Source of the DNA: a virus
Reading direction: 5' to 3' (one strand)
Length of the DNA: 20,014 nt
Virus record (IMG/VR): IMGVR_UViG_3300002519_000047
Coordinates: 1 to 20,014 of that record
In this document: positions 7,064 through 16,235 of the stretch, one piece after another
Numbering within the stretch: position 1 is the first letter of the stretch
Layout: each line of letters begins with the position of its first letter
Made by a program: the position numbers and the translations under genes
Notes under the pieces: generated by a model
Databases searched by the model: none
The model's input: the letters and a program-made list of their open reading frames with translations, nothing else
What the model was told of the DNA's origin: nothing

Positions 7064-7479
7064 TTATCCTCCTCTTGTACATCTAAATATTTCGCTTGAT
7101 ATAGTAAGAGGCTTGCTATTCTTCTTACTGCCACTTTCATTTCCTCCAATGTTTTAACGCTTGCTAACATGTTATTAATGTCTCTTACAGTTAAGAATTT
7201 ATGTTGATCGTATAGATCTTTGCTTTCTTTTCTTCTTTTATTTCTAAGTTCTTCTTTTGTTTTCTTCTTACTGTCATGGCTCTCAATTACGTTTTGTATT
7301 ACAGTAGCATCAACATTATCAGGAAACTCAAACGTGGTTAAATTATCGCTAAGAGAAACCTTGAGTTTAGCTTTATGGTAAATACCATCTTCTAATGTAC
7401 CGCGTAATTCAGGAAGGGCTTCTAATATTTCATCATGAAGTATGTTAGGTTTATGTTCTTTTTTAACAGTTATCTTCAT
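7060..7479 (-). CDS. Hypothetical phage protein, 139 aa
   Basis: ATG 7479 overlaps the stop of the C1q-like gene as ATGA, and TGA 7060 overlaps the next start. The ribosome site is weak (AGAGAAAG), so translational coupling probably matters. The N-terminal half looks like beta strands (about residues 35-65, ending NLTTFEFPDNVDATVIQNV). The second half is a very basic helix (KKKTKEELRNKRRKE) followed by a Leu-rich helix. Small proteins of this kind often follow tail genes, but I recognise no family. Assembly factor or chaperone is speculation. Confidence 0.72.
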   Translation of the reverse strand: MKITVKKEHKPNILHDEILEALPELRGTLEDGIYHKAKLKVSLSDNLTTFEFPDNVDATVIQNVIESHDSKKKTKEELRNKRRKESKDLYDQHKFLTVRDINNMLASVKTLEEMKVAVRRIASLLLYQAKYLDVQEEDN

Positions 7480-8012
7480 AGTATTCTTTCTCTGTAGGCT
7501 ATGAACTCTGATTGAGCTGCTGTGGCTATCAATGAAATGCTGCCACCACTTATATGGTGGGCAACAACTTTTACACGATCTCCAGCAATTAATTTAAGAG
7601 ACCAATTTCCATGTACTAATATTACTGAGTTCGCTGCGCCCGTCAGATCTCCACTACCTCTATGTGACCTACTCCCGTTATTGATACGTAAAAAAACCAA
7701 AGCGAGATCGCCATCGTTCATAGAATATCGTAAATACGTCATAAATGAATAGATCCCGTCTGTCGGACAAACATACTCACCTGTAGTTCCATCATAAACG
7801 TTATCGTCATCTTCAAGAATTCTATCCCAAACAAGATCAGTGCTAGTATTATCAGGAATAGATTGATTAGCATTAAAGGTAACATCGATGTATTTAGATG
7901 AATGACCTAATCCGTTTGACTCCCCCCAACCTTGAAGATACTCAAAAAGAAGAGATAACTTCTTCATAGATGTTGTGCTTTTAGGTAGAAATGGGAATGT
8001 AAGCTTGCTCAC
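7476..8012 (-). CDS. C1q/TNF-like jelly-roll protein, candidate receptor-binding tip
   Basis: It starts at GTG 8012 with AGGAGGGG just upstream, overlapping the nozzle stop as GTGA. Residues 1-40 form a short helical N-terminus. Residues about 41-178 follow the C1q-like pattern: a W-D strand near 62-63, then YDGTTGEYVCPTDGIYSFM (73-91), then LALVFLRINNG (103-113), then WSLKLIAGDRVKVV (137-150), ending in a strand with SEFIAYR. C1q-fold domains trimerise and, in phages, occur at tips of fibres or tail proteins where they bind receptors. The position just after the nozzle fits a tail-tip or receptor-binding protein. A head fibre is the alternative. The fold is inferred from pattern, not from a search. 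Confidence 0.72.
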   Translation of the reverse strand: MSKLTFPFLPKSTTSMKKLSLLFEYLQGWGESNGLGHSSKYIDVTFNANQSIPDNTSTDLVWDRILEDDDNVYDGTTGEYVCPTDGIYSFMTYLRYSMNDGDLALVFLRINNGSRSHRGSGDLTGAANSVILVHGNWSLKLIAGDRVKVVAHHISGGSISLIATAAQSEFIAYRERIL

Positions 8013-10534: not shown

Positions 10535-11455
10535 TTAATACTCGTCAAATTGGTAGGGTAAGTGAACAAATGAGTTACGTGTTCCGAAGTTGTCTGGAGC
10601 TATTCTCAACAGATCATCTAGATCTGAGTTAAGAGTTGATCTTAAAGATCTTATTTGTGTGTCGTATTCTGCTTTCAACAAAGCAGCTAGTTCTATATGG
10701 TTTCTATCTGTAAGTGTTATTAAATATTTTGCGTATGTAGCTATGGCGTAATCAGCTGAATCCTCTTGTCCCATTAAAGCAAAGCGTTCTGCTATATGAG
10801 TAGTTACTCCAGCTTCTGTTGTACCAACATAATCTTTTTCTAGTTCCATACTTGTTGTGTTAGTAAATGTTTTAATTTTATACCAATATCCATTGCCATC
10901 TTTTATATACCTTCCAACCATGGCAGCCGTAAAAGTTGTCCCACTGCCAGCAATAGTCGCATCACCGTTGGTAAAAGTTATGGTACCTGTTTCATAATCA
11001 TCATTCGCAAAATCTCTCATAAGCATTCTATACGTGAGGTACATCGTAATAGCTGCATCAGGAACTGGATACAAACCTATCTGGTTAAACCCAGCATCTG
11101 ATAATCCTAATCGAGTTACGTAATATGTAGGCGTCCCGCTAGCCCCATTATTTGAGGGGTCTGGAACCTTTTCATAAAATAAAGCTGAGTCAATCGGTTG
11201 AAGTTTTGTTGGGGTTGTGTACTGTCTAAGAGATAGGATGTGACCTAAATCTTCTACAGGTTCATAAAGGAACTGCGAACTAACTGTTGAAAATGTCGTG
11301 GACTTCATACCAAGCATTCTAATGTCGCTTAACACTCTATCTTTCGCTTGGTTTATAGCTCTAAAAAGTCTGTTATTTACAGATGTCGCTAAACTCGTAA
11401 GAGTTGTTACTCCTAGTAAAGCTCCAACTTCTAAACGCATTTCACTCGATGTCAA
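10535..11455 (-). CDS. Head-to-tail adaptor/connector-like protein, 306 aa
   Basis: The start is TTG 11455, supported by AGAGGTG five bases upstream and a 4 bp overlap with the glycosyltransferase stop; ATG at residue 6 would lie too far from that site. The N-terminal part has helices (VNNRLFRAINQAKDRVLSDI, 26-45), then GTPTYYVTRLG and LYPVPDAAITMYLTYR. This is the usual course of phage adaptor proteins that dock below the portal ring. Residues about 157-217 are an extra beta module (GTITFTNGDATIAG, then VGRYI, then MELEKDYVGTTEAG) of a type common as an insert in phage tail proteins. A helical C-terminus follows. It lies directly before the nozzle gene, as expected for a podovirus tail. Assigned from pattern and position. 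Confidence 0.75.
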   Translation of the reverse strand: MTSSEMRLEVGALLGVTTLTSLATSVNNRLFRAINQAKDRVLSDIRMLGMKSTTFSTVSSQFLYEPVEDLGHILSLRQYTTPTKLQPIDSALFYEKVPDPSNNGASGTPTYYVTRLGLSDAGFNQIGLYPVPDAAITMYLTYRMLMRDFANDDYETGTITFTNGDATIAGSGTTFTAAMVGRYIKDGNGYWYKIKTFTNTTSMELEKDYVGTTEAGVTTHIAERFALMGQEDSADYAIATYAKYLITLTDRNHIELAALLKAEYDTQIRSLRSTLNSDLDDLLRIAPDNFGTRNSFVHLPYQFDEY

Positions 11456-12330
11456 ACTTTCACCTCTAATTTCTTATTGATTTCTTCTAACATTCTATTA
11501 ACGCGATGATGAATCGTGTGATTCTCTAATACGTATCGCATTCCTTCTCTTGCTATCTTTTCTCTTTCTTCATCATGCTCTATATAATACTTCGCCTTCT
11601 CAACAGCCTCATCCATGTCCTTGTAGGTAACAAGATGTTTGCCATCTTCGAATACAGCATGAAGTTCTGGGATGTCATTGGTTAGTAAAAAAGATCCTGT
11701 TGCTAAGGCTTCAAAGCAACGCATATTGAGATCATCTTTAATGGAGATATTAAATACTATTTTAGATTCACAATACTTTCTTGCAGCTTCTTCAAATAGT
11801 CTTTGTCCGTAAAAGAAGTTTGGAAATTCTTTAAACATGGTATCCAAAGCATCTATCCTGTTGCCGGAGTTAATATGACCTACAAAACAAATGTCAGTTT
11901 TCTTTCCAGGTATTTCGTAATTAGGATAGGCTTGTGGACAGACCGCGTGAGGAAGCCACAAGGCATGTTCAATTCCAGCTTTCTTAGCATCTTCTACTGC
12001 ACTCTGTTGAGCGAAGAAAACAATATCAAATTCTTTAGCCTTTTCTAGTCTCCAACCACCATCTAGGTGGGTGTCACTCATCCAACATAGATTTGGTTTA
12101 GGAGTCTTGAAAGGAACGTAAGGTAGCATTCCATATAGGGCATCTTCACCCCAATCAACATAAAGATGAAAATCATAATTACCAAATACATGCACATCTC
12201 CATCTGGAATAAAATGGTCTATTTCTAATTCGTTATCCTTCTGTCTGTTTTTTAAATCATTCCACACATATAATGGATTTCCATCATTGCGTCCTAATCG
12301 ATTTTCATAGTATATCGCTAGTCTATGCAT
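11452..12330 (-). CDS. GT-B glycosyltransferase, CgeB-like (group 1 type), 292 aa
   Basis: Third gene of the glycan cassette. ATG 12330 overlaps the previous gene by 8 bp and has AAGGGG upstream. The N-terminal half has a Rossmann-like course with DFHLYVDWGED (53-63) and LCWMSDTHLDGGW (81-93). The linker holds ICFVGHINSGNR (147-158), a typical start of the second GT-B lobe. NMRCFEALATGSFLLTNDIP (202-221) is the nucleotide-sugar binding region with the conserved Glu. EDGKHLVTYKDMDEAVEKA follows. This matches glycosyl transferases group 1 of the CgeB type. The product probably transfers a sugar from an NDP-sugar in the cytoplasm; donor and acceptor cannot be read. It is coupled by TTGA to the adaptor gene, so it is co-expressed with virion proteins. 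Confidence 0.85.
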   Translation of the reverse strand: MHRLAIYYENRLGRNDGNPLYVWNDLKNRQKDNELEIDHFIPDGDVHVFGNYDFHLYVDWGEDALYGMLPYVPFKTPKPNLCWMSDTHLDGGWRLEKAKEFDIVFFAQQSAVEDAKKAGIEHALWLPHAVCPQAYPNYEIPGKKTDICFVGHINSGNRIDALDTMFKEFPNFFYGQRLFEEAARKYCESKIVFNISIKDDLNMRCFEALATGSFLLTNDIPELHAVFEDGKHLVTYKDMDEAVEKAKYYIEHDEEREKIAREGMRYVLENHTIHHRVNRMLEEINKKLEVKV

Positions 12331-13573
12331 AGATTTCAGCCCCTTTTTTAACCTTTTCAGCTACCGTTACAAAACTCACAAAATTCTCTACATCAACATT
12401 TGCAACAACATGGAAACCGAACATCTCTAATAATGAAGGTAAGCTTGATTTAGTAAAGGCATGAACGGGTTCTGGATTCATTGGAATGGTATCGCCTATC
12501 GTTTGATCTGGAACGGCAATGATAAGCCGTCCATCAGGTTTTAATACTCTTCGCCACTCTTTAATGGTCTTCGATAGATCCACACAATGTTCTAATAAAT
12601 GTCTAGCTATAATCGTATCTACACTATCTGTTTCAAACGGTAACTCTTCTTCTGCATTTGCTTCAATGTCAGCAACACTTAATTCATTGCTAAGGGTTGA
12701 AATTGCATCTCCTTTTTTAATCCTATCTACACCTATAGAGTTTTCAATTGTTTTTCTGAAGCCACAACCCAGTTCAACAACTTGTTCGCCTGTGATATAG
12801 CTTCTAACAAGATCCCCTTCCATATCCCCTTCTTTCATTTCGTGAATACCCTCTATTGGCTGCCTTTGACACTCGAGGAATAATTTAAAACCATGCTTTT
12901 GAATTAAAGCTTTATTGGTTCTATCAATCATATCAATCGAGTTCCAGCCCATAGGTTGATCTGGTAGACCATGAACTTTAGTTCCTGTCACAAAACCATG
13001 ATGATAGATCATCACGCTTGGTTGAATTAAAAGCTTATAACCAGCTTTTAAGAATCTCATTGATAAATCGAAGTCATCCCCCCCAGGAAGCGTGTCATCG
13101 ATTCCACCAACCTCTTCTAAAGCACTTCTTCTTACCGCTACGCAAAATCCAATTAAATAACTTGTAGTTACAATGTCTTTAGGTGTATTAGGGTGAAATA
13201 TGTTTTGTAATCCTGATACGCAATTTGAAGTAGGTCCAACCGCTGCTACTTTCTTATCGTGAAATGGAAACAATAGGTTAATTAGCCAGTGACTTGATGT
13301 CTGAGGAACAAAGGTATCATCATTCATAAACACAATAAATTCGCTATCCGTGTGTTTAAGACCTTCTTTTAAACCACCTTCCCATCCAAGGTTTTTCTCT
13401 GTATTAACAATCTTAAGTAATTTATCTTTAGGTAATATAGTTTCTAATGGAGCTTTGCCGTTATTAACAACAACTATATCTGCAATACCTTGGTTGTGTT
13501 TTAGAATAGACTCTACGCAATTCTTCAGGTAATCAATTGAATCATATGTTGGAATTATCACTGTTGCTATCAT
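12323..13573 (-). CDS. Bifunctional GT2 glycosyltransferase / SAM-dependent methyltransferase, 416 aa
   Basis: ATG 13573 overlaps the upstream stop as ATGA. Residues 1-235 are a GT-A family 2 glycosyltransferase: VIIPTYDSIDYL (5-16), VVVNNG (34-39), NLGWEGG (61-67), the metal-binding MNDD (83-86), GGIDDTLPGGDDFDLSMRFL (156-175) and the downstream HHG. Residues about 250-400 are a class I methyltransferase: motif I VVELGCG (265-271), GVDR (281-284), LPFETDSVDTIIARHLLEH (311-329) and the RRVLKPDGRLIIAVPD helix-strand (341-356). Both domains look intact. The likely role is to add a sugar and then methylate it, or to methylate the previous residue so that chain growth is capped. Order and specificity are inference. 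No frameshift or stop separates the two halves. Confidence 0.87.
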   Translation of the reverse strand: MIATVIIPTYDSIDYLKNCVESILKHNQGIADIVVVNNGKAPLETILPKDKLLKIVNTEKNLGWEGGLKEGLKHTDSEFIVFMNDDTFVPQTSSHWLINLLFPFHDKKVAAVGPTSNCVSGLQNIFHPNTPKDIVTTSYLIGFCVAVRRSALEEVGGIDDTLPGGDDFDLSMRFLKAGYKLLIQPSVMIYHHGFVTGTKVHGLPDQPMGWNSIDMIDRTNKALIQKHGFKLFLECQRQPIEGIHEMKEGDMEGDLVRSYITGEQVVELGCGFRKTIENSIGVDRIKKGDAISTLSNELSVADIEANAEEELPFETDSVDTIIARHLLEHCVDLSKTIKEWRRVLKPDGRLIIAVPDQTIGDTIPMNPEPVHAFTKSSLPSLLEMFGFHVVANVDVENFVSFVTVAEKVKKGAEIYA

Positions 13574-14313
13574 GACACCTCTGTCGTTTTGTATTTGATG
13601 TATTCACCGTTGTGTCTCTCTACTTGTAGGTTGCTTTCTTTCCAATAAGCATGAGCTGAATCTTCAGTCACTTTAATTGGATTTCCTAGATGACCTAACT
13701 TTGTAGATGTATCAACATAAACTTTAAAACCATACTTCTTAGCGTTGTAACAAAAGAGAATGTCTTCACCTGTTTGTGATGATAGAGCAAAATAAGGTGG
13801 TTTCATTTTTCTAAACACATCCATTTTAATAAGAGCTGTACCGAAACCAAATGCATCACATTCAACCAACTTATCTTTTGGATAATTCATGATGTAATGG
13901 TTGATAAAGTAATCTTTCTTATCAATAGGATCCCAGCCATCTATACAAGAATAGATAACGGGTTTGAAGGGTGGATTCCTTGTGAATGCTAGTCCACCAA
14001 CGATATCAACATCGTGTCTGTATAATCTTTCAAAAATATCGTTATCTGCGATCATATCGTCATCAATCATCCACAGATAATCCATTCCAGCCTCTAGAGA
14101 ATTCTTAACAGCTTCTTCTCTAGCCATAGGGGTAAAAGTTCTTCCTATTACAAAGAAATAGAAATCAAATTCAACAGGTTCGTTCTTACTTCTTTCGGCC
14201 AATCTTCCTAAATGCAAAAAGTTTAAGAGTCTGTTTTCATAGGATTCTACTTGTGTATATCCGTTATTCGGAATTGCAATAGCAACTTTTACTACCTTAT
14301 GATTCTCAGCCAT
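13570..14313 (-). CDS. GT-A glycosyltransferase, phage type, 247 aa
   Basis: First gene of the cassette. I chose ATG 14313 (MAENHKVVKVAIAIPNNG), with GGGAGAG nine bases upstream, over an in-frame TTG 18 bases earlier that has no ribosome site. The fold follows GT-A: beta strand VAIAIPNNG (10-18), Arg-containing MAREEAVKNS, the metal site MIDDDMIAD (82-90), DIVGGLAFTRNP (103-114), a hydrophobic acceptor loop FGFGTALIKMDVF (155-167), GEDILFCYNAKKYGFKVYVD (182-201) with the catalytic-type acidic pair, and LGHLGNP (206-212). This arrangement is common among glycosyltransferases carried by phages and giant viruses. It should use an NDP-sugar with Mn2+ or Mg2+. It overlaps the gene before it by 22 bp and the GT2-methyltransferase by 4 bp, so the three enzymes are probably made together late in infection. 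The sugar and acceptor are unknown. Confidence 0.85.
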   Translation of the reverse strand: MAENHKVVKVAIAIPNNGYTQVESYENRLLNFLHLGRLAERSKNEPVEFDFYFFVIGRTFTPMAREEAVKNSLEAGMDYLWMIDDDMIADNDIFERLYRHDVDIVGGLAFTRNPPFKPVIYSCIDGWDPIDKKDYFINHYIMNYPKDKLVECDAFGFGTALIKMDVFRKMKPPYFALSSQTGEDILFCYNAKKYGFKVYVDTSTKLGHLGNPIKVTEDSAHAYWKESNLQVERHNGEYIKYKTTEVS

Positions 14314-14483
14314 ATAGAAATTCTCTCCCAATATTTAATTACTACAGGTTGTGCAACATAGTGACCAGCGTGTTTCTTTAAACACGATTGATCATCGGTC
14401 ACTAAAGCATAATCTGTACGACAACGGGACACCTCCAGAGGTTTTCCAAAAGGTCGTTTTACAAAACATGTAGGTGTCCACAT
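14292..14483 (-). CDS. Small Cys-containing hypothetical protein, 63 aa
   Basis: ATG 14483 has AAGGAA eight bases upstream, and the frame ends 22 bp inside the first glycosyltransferase gene. The product (MWTPTCFVKRPFGKPLEVSR at its start) contains three Cys, at residues 6, 21 and 34, plus His residues at 38 and 41. That could fit a small metal-binding or disulphide fold, but no clear CxxC pair is present. The good ribosome site and the fit between neighbours argue that it is real; without it there would be an unusual gap of about 170 bp in an otherwise gapless operon. It may be an accessory of the glycosylation cassette or a small head protein. Not recognised. Confidence 0.6.
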   Translation of the reverse strand: MWTPTCFVKRPFGKPLEVSRCRTDYALVTDDQSCLKKHAGHYVAQPVVIKYWERISIWLRIIR

Positions 14484-14499: not shown

Positions 14500-14946
14500 T
14501 TAAAGGCCTCTTACAAATCCCTTAATCCAGACTTGTGCTGAAACGGCAGCGGGTGTTTCTGCTGCTTTGACGTATCTGTAGAGTAGGGTTGAAAGAGCTT
14601 GGTTGGTAAGTGAACTGAAAAATGTTCCAGCTACTGCACCAGGTTTGAGGGTATCACCACGAGTAATCGTGATAGAAGTCCCTACGTGTGAAACTAGAAC
14701 TGACGCGGCATAACCCCAAGCAGTTACTTGTCCGTAACCGTTGATCGCTATGTCTTGCTTTGCAACACCACCAAAACCACTGATTGTAGCAGCCGTTGAA
14801 TTAACTGCGCTAACTCCATCAATAGAAGCACCGGCTTGTACTAAACAAACACCAGCACCTGTGGTAATTGATCCACCACCATCTACGTTTTTAACAACTA
14901 AACGAATGGTTTCTGCATCGGTTCTGTTAATGCGTTGCGTATTCAA
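14500..14946 (-). CDS. Capsid decoration/cement-like protein, 148 aa
   Basis: The start is TTG 14946 (MNTQRINRTDAET), with AAAGGAG about nine bases upstream. The protein is rich in Gly, Ala, Val, Ser and Thr and looks all-beta, with GYGQVTAWGYAASVLV, SITITRGDTLKPGAVAGTFF and a C-terminal VWIKGFVRGL. The strand course and the GDTLKPG turn are like small capsid cement proteins (DUF2190-like) that usually sit next to the major capsid gene. It lies two genes after the major capsid protein and directly before the glycan cassette, so it is a reasonable but unproven candidate acceptor for glycosylation. A head-fibre or completion role is an alternative. Confidence 0.65.
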   Translation of the reverse strand: MNTQRINRTDAETIRLVVKNVDGGGSITTGAGVCLVQAGASIDGVSAVNSTAATISGFGGVAKQDIAINGYGQVTAWGYAASVLVSHVGTSITITRGDTLKPGAVAGTFFSSLTNQALSTLLYRYVKAAETPAAVSAQVWIKGFVRGL

Positions 14947-15001: not shown

Positions 15002-15271
15002 TTATTTTCCTAACAGTTTCCAAGTACCAGAATAGCCTTCTGTATTGTCAACTGTTATTGTGATAGTTCCGCTAGAGATTGTAACCTTTGGATTAGGTGT
15101 AGCTACACCACCAACCTCAAACTTTATGTCATGGTCCATGATGTAATTCAAGCCATGCGTTGAAGCATCTAATGTGCCTGAAGTATCACCATCTGCGGTC
15201 GTAAAAGTTCCGAACGCTAACCAATGACTACCTCTTGGAACCTTTTCAGTGACTGTAAACGAAAAAGCCAT
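15002..15271 (-). CDS. Small head-associated protein after the major capsid gene, 89 aa
   Basis: ATG 15271 is preceded by AAGGAG, which overlaps the stop of the capsid gene. The product starts MAFSFTVTEKVPRGSHWLAF and continues with strands such as GTFTTADGDTSGTLD, IKFEVGG and PKVTISSGTITITVDN, ending GTWKLLGK. Short beta-rich proteins with this FTVTEK...GTFT opening often follow the major capsid gene in tailed phages and are annotated as minor structural proteins. A decoration or head-completion role fits the position. No membrane segment or catalytic motif. Exact function unknown. Confidence 0.72.
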   Translation of the reverse strand: MAFSFTVTEKVPRGSHWLAFGTFTTADGDTSGTLDASTHGLNYIMDHDIKFEVGGVATPNPKVTISSGTITITVDNTEGYSGTWKLLGK

Positions 15272-15281
15272 TCAGTACTCC

Positions 15282-16235
15282 TTATGCAGTAATTCCGCTT
15301 AACACACAGTGTGTTCGACGAGAGTCAACAACTAAGTTACCGTAGACTAAAATCTGGGCAACTTTTGCGTCTTGATTCTCAGGACGGACAAATGGTGTAG
15401 TAACGAAATCCTTACCTTTACCCATCTCGAAAAAGAGATGGTTACTATTTAACAAATACATTGTTCCACTCGGACACGCGCGATCAAATAAAACAGGTGT
15501 TGCTTTGAACGCTAAATGCGGGAATGAAAGTTTACCAGTACCATCAGGACCAGTTACGGTGAGGTATCGTTCGTTGGATGCCATCGTTTTTTCGTAGTAT
15601 CCAAAAACGGCTTCAGTCGTAAAGATCACATCTGGACGGGAAGAACCGTAGAGAGCGGAATTATAACCAGCTCTCATCTTGTCCACACCGTTAGATGCAA
15701 ATGATCCTACGGATTGCTGCTTCTGATTCTGCCAATAAGTATTAGTAGAAGAATTAATATTTCCTACTGTTCCTGTACCAGCATCATTAACAAGATTTTG
15801 TAATCCTTCGATCTTGTTACCGCTTTGCGAAGCAAATGCGTCAGTGTTTAATACGTCCCGTAAGGACATTTCTGCGTTTTTAATCTTCCCTTCGAGAAGA
15901 TTAATTATTTCCCACTCCGAAGAGTTTTGAAATTCTTCGAGTCCATTAATTGCGATACTTACTGAGTATTGACGAATGTTATATTCTGCACTCGTAAACT
16001 CATCCTGGGGTGTCGTGTCCAAAAGTGAATACGATGCGTATTCACCAGCGGTCGTGTTCTTAGCTTCGATAATCGGTTTAACGATTGTACGACCACCACC
16101 AAGGGTTTTGACGTTACCCTTCTTTGACAACCAATTGAACAATGGCAACGGATTGAAGACGTTATCTTCTAGATTCGATGCATGGTTCTGTAAAGTTGTC
16201 GAAATAAGGGAGTCGAAGTTTGAATTACCTGCCAT
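15282..16235 (-). CDS. Major capsid protein, HK97-fold family, 317 aa
   Basis: ATG 16235 has AGGAGG nine bases upstream. The sequence shows the usual course of an HK97-like coat protein: an N-terminal helix (residues about 4-35), PLPLFNWLSKKG, the conserved strand GGGRTIVKPIIEAKN, DTTPQDEFTSAEYNIRQYSV, SIAINGLEEFQNSSEWEIIN (the E-loop to spine-helix region), LLEGKIKNAEMSLRDVLN, then DVIFTTEAVFGYYEKTM and the C-terminal P-domain strands ending LVVDSRRTHCVLSGITA. The length is typical, with no obvious N-terminal delta domain, consistent with the separate scaffold gene directly upstream. It forms the icosahedral shell around the scaffold core. The call rests on pattern and on the portal-scaffold-capsid order. 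Confidence 0.9.
   Translation of the reverse strand: MAGNSNFDSLISTTLQNHASNLEDNVFNPLPLFNWLSKKGNVKTLGGGRTIVKPIIEAKNTTAGEYASYSLLDTTPQDEFTSAEYNIRQYSVSIAINGLEEFQNSSEWEIINLLEGKIKNAEMSLRDVLNTDAFASQSGNKIEGLQNLVNDAGTGTVGNINSSTNTYWQNQKQQSVGSFASNGVDKMRAGYNSALYGSSRPDVIFTTEAVFGYYEKTMASNERYLTVTGPDGTGKLSFPHLAFKATPVLFDRACPSGTMYLLNSNHLFFEMGKGKDFVTTPFVRPENQDAKVAQILVYGNLVVDSRRTHCVLSGITA

What the first reader, a model, noticed from the sequence alone, without database searches (positions are those of the whole stretch)
11452..14313. Three-enzyme glycan cassette translationally coupled into the virion operon
A GT-A transferase, a GT2-methyltransferase fusion and a GT-B (CgeB-like) transferase are joined by 4-8 bp overlaps and lie between a decoration-like gene and the head-tail adaptor. 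Expression must coincide with virion assembly, so the acceptor is more likely a virion protein or a late envelope glycan than phage DNA. Virion glycosylation by phage transferases is known in some phages, for example mycobacteriophages. A cassette with a built-in methyl cap inside a podovirus tail operon is, as far as I know, not well described.
Basis: partly seen in the sequence, partly recalled or inferred. Interest (0 to 1): 0.62.

Follow-up and report, generated by a model that had tools for sequence, protein, structure and literature searches.

The report
Phage capsid-decoration sugar-coating gene cassette
This uncultured phage carries, right beside its capsid gene, a ready-made set of a capsid decoration protein plus three sugar-attaching enzymes, and about 75 other uncultured phages carry the same set in the same order, which suggests that coating the virus shell with sugars is more widespread than the few known cases.

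Summary
Three glycosyltransferase genes (GT-A; GT2 fused to a methyltransferase; GT-B of the Glyco_trans_1_2 family) overlap by 4 and 8 bp, and the last overlaps the SU10-type adaptor gene by 4 bp. The order capsid - decoration protein - GT-A - GT2(-MT) - GT-B - adaptor recurs on one strand in 73 of 76 distinct uncultured-phage contigs; neither the fusion nor the decoration protein has a tblastn match in 50,697 GenBank phage records. The neighbour (14500-14946) is predicted to have the phage capsid decoration fold and is co-inherited with the transferases (rho 0.64-0.71) far more than with the capsid protein (0.30). GT-A most resembles STIV A197, candidate enzyme for that virus's glycosylated coat. 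No DNA-modification genes were found. Best reading: a virion-glycosylation module whose main acceptor is its own decoration protein, with variable tailoring genes in relatives. Nearest known: mycobacteriophage virion glycosylation; Che8 also has overlapping transferases including a GT2-methyltransferase fusion, so the methyl cap is not new. New are the dedicated decoration protein, the placement and the breadth. Glycosylation itself is untested.

The parts
14500..14946 (-). capsid decoration protein (148 aa), proposed acceptor
   Evidence: AlphaFold model pLDDT 90.8; decoration/cement fold, Z 12.0 to HFTV1 and 9-11 to Sf11, T1, TW1, Pam3, phi29 gp8.5 base; co-inherited with the enzymes
14292..14483 (-). 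small Cys/His-rich protein (63 aa), possible zinc site, role unknown
   Evidence: homologues in 51 of 64 cassette contigs with enough flank; CxxC/D ... C/H-x-GH pattern
13570..14313 (-). GT-A glycosyltransferase
   Evidence: phrog_1574/phrog_12406; model pLDDT 94.2; closest STIV A197; D84, D86, G182-E183-D184, H208 invariant in 71
12323..13573 (-). GT2 glycosyltransferase fused to a SAM methyltransferase
   Evidence: PF00535 at residues 4-117 and PF08241 at 277-352; N84-D85-D86 and D166-D167 in 72 of 72 homologues, H325/E328/H329 where the methyltransferase domain exists
11452..12330 (-). GT-B glycosyltransferase (Glyco_trans_1_2)
   Evidence: PF13524, E 9.6e-30; E207 in 64 of 64 homologues
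10535..11455 (-). SU10-type head-tail adaptor, downstream boundary
   Evidence: PF24175; 4-bp overlap with GT-B; evolves with portal and capsid, not with the cassette
15002..15271 (-). 89-aa protein between capsid and decoration genes, alternative acceptor
   Evidence: homologues in cassette contigs, none among 79 cassette-less capsid relatives; weakly linked to the enzymes
15282..16235 (-). major capsid protein, upstream boundary
   Evidence: phrog_9953 major head protein, E 8.7e-60

Best explanation
A virion-glycosylation module. During late expression the GT-A enzyme attaches a first sugar to a virion protein in the cytoplasm, the GT2-methyltransferase fusion extends and O-methylates the glycan, and the GT-B enzyme extends it further. 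The main acceptor is the capsid decoration protein encoded just upstream, so the shell carries many copies of a short, partly methylated glycan. Shown here: gene order, overlaps, predicted folds, conserved catalytic residues, conserved linkage, and co-inheritance of the decoration gene with the enzymes. Inferred: that glycosylation happens, which protein is the acceptor, the order of sugar addition, what is methylated, and the benefit (masking the shell or changing what it sticks to).
For: Order kept in 73 of 76 contigs; decoration gene in 63 of 64, GT-B in 52 of 52; all 25 loci found by the decoration protein carry the enzymes. Decoration fold. Decoration-enzyme rho 0.64-0.71 against 0.30 with capsid, bootstrap difference intervals above zero; window vs L095/L151: decoration 66-70%, GT-B 58-59%, capsid 30-33%, portal 21-24%. 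GT-A closest to STIV A197 and collagen hydroxylysine glycosyltransferases; STIV coat is glycosylated and A197 is the candidate (PMC4187194). Catalytic residues kept. No membrane segments in the enzymes. Sugar-tailoring genes in relatives. Che8 parallel.
Against: No mass, stain or deletion data exist for any member. In MW202711 and MW202496 a lone GT-A homologue sits by the capsid gene without this decoration protein, so the GT-A family need not use it. The 89-aa protein also sits in the block's neighbourhood. Ser/Thr content does not single out the decoration protein. Weak linkage to the capsid protein could also mean it is not bound to the shell as assumed.
Confidence: 0.6

Rival explanations
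1. The enzymes glycosylate another virion protein (major capsid protein, the 89-aa protein, a tail component or the C1q-domain protein), as reported for capsid and tail tube of mycobacteriophages; the decoration protein is a passenger or partner.
For: Mycobacteriophage glycans sit on capsid and tail tube subunits (PMC12619734, PMC11600133). A lone GT-A homologue lies by the capsid gene without a decoration homologue in two Manatee Spring phages.
Against: Capsid, portal and adaptor evolve apart from the enzymes, the decoration protein with them.
Confidence: 0.22
2. The enzymes modify a host surface glycan late in infection, for example to block superinfection or ease release.
For: The fusion weakly matches a GtrB-like O-antigen conversion family (phrog_841, E 6e-4); phage serotype conversion is a known use of glycosyltransferases.
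Against: No membrane segment in the three enzymes, no flippase or lipid-carrier gene in the window's cassette; fixed position in the head operon and co-inheritance with a decoration gene.
Confidence: 0.1
3. The enzymes add sugars to modified bases of the phage DNA.
For: Virus-encoded glycosyltransferases that hypermodify DNA exist (Pyle 2024, cited in PMC12619734).
Against: No Tet/JBP match in 20 records, though no control genome rang; no thymidylate-synthase-type hydroxymethylase in 18 records, control rang in 9 of 14; none seen in the rest of the sister genome; genes lie in the head operon.
Confidence: 0.05

Closest known systems
Mycobacteriophage virion glycosylation (Che8 gp108-110; cluster O phages)
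   Same: Three glycosyltransferase genes overlapping by 4 bp, one a GT2-methyltransferase fusion, another GT25; Che8 capsid reported glycosylated (PMC11256854); cluster O phages have three tandem transferases after an O-methyltransferase gene (PMC11600133).
   Different: Che8 enzymes lie at the far genome end, with nothing between capsid and adaptor genes; no clear homology beyond generic GT2; no linked decoration gene there.
STIV A197, archaeal virus glycosyltransferase
   Same: Best structural match of GT-A (E 1.7e-11, Z 18.3); candidate enzyme for a glycosylated coat protein (PMC4187194).
   Different: Single enzyme in an unrelated, non-tailed virus; A197 itself remains uncharacterized according to that review.
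Lone GT-A homologue of Manatee Spring phages MW202711 and MW202496
   Same: GT-A homologue (HMM E 3.5e-33 and 9e-28 in a small set) between the capsid gene and downstream virion genes.
   Different: One transferase only; no GT2, GT-B, decoration or small-protein homologue among the genes tested.
Phage capsid decoration/cement proteins (HFTV1, T1, Sf11, TW1, Pam3, phi29 gp8.5 base)
   Same: Same predicted fold and position after the capsid gene.
   Different: Here the gene is tied to glycosyltransferases and is inherited with them rather than with the capsid gene.

Membership tests
Phage-encoded virion glycosylation system (mycobacteriophage kind) | Phage-encoded glycosyltransferases with intact catalytic motifs | tested here: met
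Phage-encoded virion glycosylation system (mycobacteriophage kind) | Glycan covalently attached to a virion protein | not testable with these tools
   needs mass spectrometry of virions or co-expressed proteins
Phage-encoded virion glycosylation system (mycobacteriophage kind) | Sequence relationship to the Che8 transferases | tested here: inconclusive
   Only generic GT2 similarity, best 6.1 bits; shared domain types GT2 + methyltransferase
Capsid decoration/cement protein | Decoration-protein fold | tested here: met
   Z 9-12 to several decoration proteins; the same fold also occurs in fibres and appendages
Capsid decoration/cement protein | Presence on the virion surface | not testable with these tools
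   needs virion proteomics or cryo-EM
Phage DNA hypermodification system | Base-modifying enzyme that creates the acceptor (Tet/JBP or hydroxymethylase) | tested here: inconclusive
   No match in 20 and 18 records; Tet/JBP search had no ringing control, and other base-modifying enzymes were not searched
Gtr-type serotype conversion | Membrane flippase and polyprenol-linked membrane transferase beside the gene | tested here: not met
   Window cassette has no such gene and its three enzymes no membrane-like segment

The most novel reading that the evidence does not exclude
A self-contained, exchangeable glyco-decoration module: a dedicated capsid decoration protein is inherited with the enzymes that glycosylate it, moves between diverged capsids, and carries a variable tailoring slot, so that phages change their outer sugar coat much as bacteria change surface polysaccharides.
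Probability: 0.45. Interest if true: 0.75.

Novelty: new variant of a known kind. Interest (0 to 1): 0.6.

Why it matters
Phage virion glycosylation is known chiefly from mycobacteriophages. A conserved acceptor-plus-enzymes cassette in about 76 distinct uncultured phages would make it a widespread trait of environmental viruses. It also offers a compact system, one acceptor and three enzymes, that can be expressed and assayed in a laboratory strain, and a handle on why a virus of bacteria would coat its shell in sugar.

Tried and rejected
DNA similarity of the window to GenBank phages: none. tblastn of the fusion and decoration proteins: none; GT-A only weak, partial matches, mostly cyanophages; GT-B partial matches in 3 records. 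0 of 79 near capsid relatives carry the enzymes (two weak decoration hits there lie in a long fibre-like ORF), but those relatives form one clade in the capsid tree, so this is one contrast, not 79. Ser41 of the decoration protein is invariant in 68 of 68, but it was not pressed as the glycosylation site because a weakly similar domain in a cassette-less phage appears to keep it. Ser/Thr content does not set the decoration protein apart from the capsid protein (17.8 vs 17.6%). Promoter and terminator patterns were not above chance. A methyl cap as a universal feature was rejected: several relatives have a GT2 ORF of about 233-278 aa without the methyltransferase part. Pfam gave no family for the decoration protein, and only one weak Phage_cement_2 match among 68 homologues. 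Freeman 2023 is not in the library, so it is cited at second hand.

Full report
OBSERVATION. The three genes, their order, strand and short overlaps are as described: GT-A 14313..13570, GT2-methyltransferase 13573..12323, GT-B 12330..11452, adaptor 11455..10535, with overlaps of 4, 8 and 4 bp. Pfam gives Glycos_transf_2 plus Methyltransf_11 for the fusion, Glyco_trans_1_2 for the GT-B enzyme and the SU10 adaptor for the downstream gene. GT-A is weak in Pfam but matches phrog_1574 and the glycosyltransferase family phrog_12406, as do 71 and 58 of 71 homologues. C/H-x-GH pattern suggestive of a zinc site.

THE CASSETTE IS CONSERVED. The window's virus record is 23,395 bp; a 39,093 bp contig encodes the same searched proteins at 99-100% identity. 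Scans of viral contigs with GT-B, with a decoration-protein alignment and with a fusion alignment, and of prokaryote contigs, gave 76 distinct contigs after removing repeats. Where the contig reaches far enough, the decoration gene is present in 63 of 64, GT-A in 70 of 71, GT-B in 52 of 52 and the capsid gene in 58 of 59. The order portal - capsid - decoration - GT-A - GT2(-MT) - GT-B - adaptor, on one strand, holds in 73 of 76. All 25 loci found through the decoration protein also carry the enzymes. GenBank phages have no tblastn match to the fusion or decoration protein.

THE NEIGHBOUR IS A DECORATION-TYPE PROTEIN. An alignment of 68 homologues gave a model with pLDDT 90.8. Foldseek's first two dozen PDB matches come from capsid decoration, cement or head-fibre proteins of phages and HFTV1. 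VIA-align gives Z 12.0 to HFTV1, 10.6 to Sf11, 10.0 to T1, 9.4 to TW1, 9.2 to Pam3 and 9.1 to the phi29 gp8.5 base. The fold also occurs as a domain in fibre-like proteins and phi29 gp12, so the assignment rests on fold plus position. One relative (L109) has three tandem copies before GT-A.

IT IS INHERITED WITH THE ENZYMES. The correlation of pairwise distances between the decoration protein and GT-A, fusion and GT-B is 0.69, 0.64 and 0.71, like that among the enzymes (0.61-0.72). With the capsid protein it is 0.30 and with the portal 0.34, while adaptor-portal and adaptor-capsid are 0.83 and 0.78. Bootstrap intervals for the difference exclude zero: GT-B minus capsid 0.20 to 0.64, GT-A minus capsid 0.18 to 0.53. 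Distance along the DNA does not explain this: the median gap from capsid to decoration gene is 358 bp, whereas GT-A and GT2 genes lie between decoration gene and GT-B. Against L095 and L151 the window is 66-70% identical in the decoration protein and 58-59% in GT-B, but 30-33% in capsid and 21-24% in portal; against L132 and L093 it is 47% in capsid but 39-45% in decoration. This points to exchange of the block from decoration gene to GT-B relative to the genes on both sides. Caveat: loci were found through decoration, GT-B or fusion motifs, which may favour conserved copies; GT-A, not used in the multi-locus scans, behaves the same way.

THE ENZYMES. GT-A homologues keep D84, D86, G182-E183-D184 and H208 throughout. 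The model (pLDDT 94.2) is closest to STIV A197 (E 1.7e-11, Z 18.3), then LH3, COLGALT1, mimivirus R699 and Mnn9. STIV's coat protein is glycosylated and A197 is the candidate enzyme (PMC4187194). The fusion keeps N84-D85-D86 and D166-D167 in all 72 homologues, and H325, E328 and H329 where the methyltransferase domain exists; several relatives have the GT2 part alone. None of the three has a membrane-like segment. In relatives, genes between or around the enzymes include O-methyltransferases, NAD-dependent epimerases, a DegT aminotransferase, WbqC, a formyltransferase and an extra GT2, a tailoring set expected of a variable glycan.

WHAT IT IS PROBABLY NOT. No Tet/JBP match in 20 related records, though no control rang, and no thymidylate-synthase-type hydroxymethylase in 18 records, with the control ringing in 9 of 14 genomes. 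The rest of the sister genome shows, by eye, a DnaB-like helicase, a nuclease-like protein and fibre-like genes, but no DNA-modification gene. The window's cassette has no flippase or membrane transferase, so serotype conversion is unlikely.

COMPARISON WITH THE KNOWN. Mycobacteriophage virions carry glycans on the C-termini of capsid and tail tube subunits (PMC12619734, citing Freeman 2023, which could not be read). Che8 is reported to be glycosylated on its capsid (PMC11256854). Its annotated transferase genes 108-110 overlap by 4 bp, gp108 is a GT2-methyltransferase fusion and gp110 is GT25. They show no clear homology to the present enzymes beyond generic GT2 and lie at the far genome end. 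That these three genes make the Che8 glycan is inferred here from annotation and second-hand reports. The parallel supports the virion reading and removes the novelty of the methyl cap. Manatee Spring phages MW202711 and MW202496 have a lone GT-A homologue next to the capsid gene, perhaps a simpler form.

VERDICT. A new variant of a known kind: probable virion glycosylation by a co-inherited decoration protein and transferase cassette, spread over many uncultured phages. A virion protein as acceptor is about 0.8 likely, the decoration protein specifically about 0.6. Glycosylation itself is not shown.

Noticed in passing
   Followed up: partly
window 10535-11455 (-): Adaptor residues about 153-262 match N-terminal parts of many tail-fibre PHROGs, as if a fibre-like domain were inserted in the adaptor.
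   Followed up: no
L109:6955-8471: Three tandem decoration genes directly before GT-A in one relative.
   Followed up: partly
L088:5797-6402, L092:9414-9977, L145:9157-9702: Probable HNH homing endonuclease genes on the opposite strand between the GT2-methyltransferase and GT-B genes of relatives.
   Followed up: no
L088:7313-7933, L090:10923-11504, L095:9792-10379: A conserved gene of about 200 aa (begins like MQVFRLMGMPDKVIAFDELPERFLKGFE) follows GT-B in many relatives but not in the window.
   Followed up: no
window 7476-8012 (-): C1q-domain protein encoded after the 841-aa virion protein; another possible surface protein.
   Followed up: no
L184: A cassette-bearing 35.7 kb contig is binned in a Nitrososphaeraceae genome: a mis-binned phage or a host hint.
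   Followed up: no
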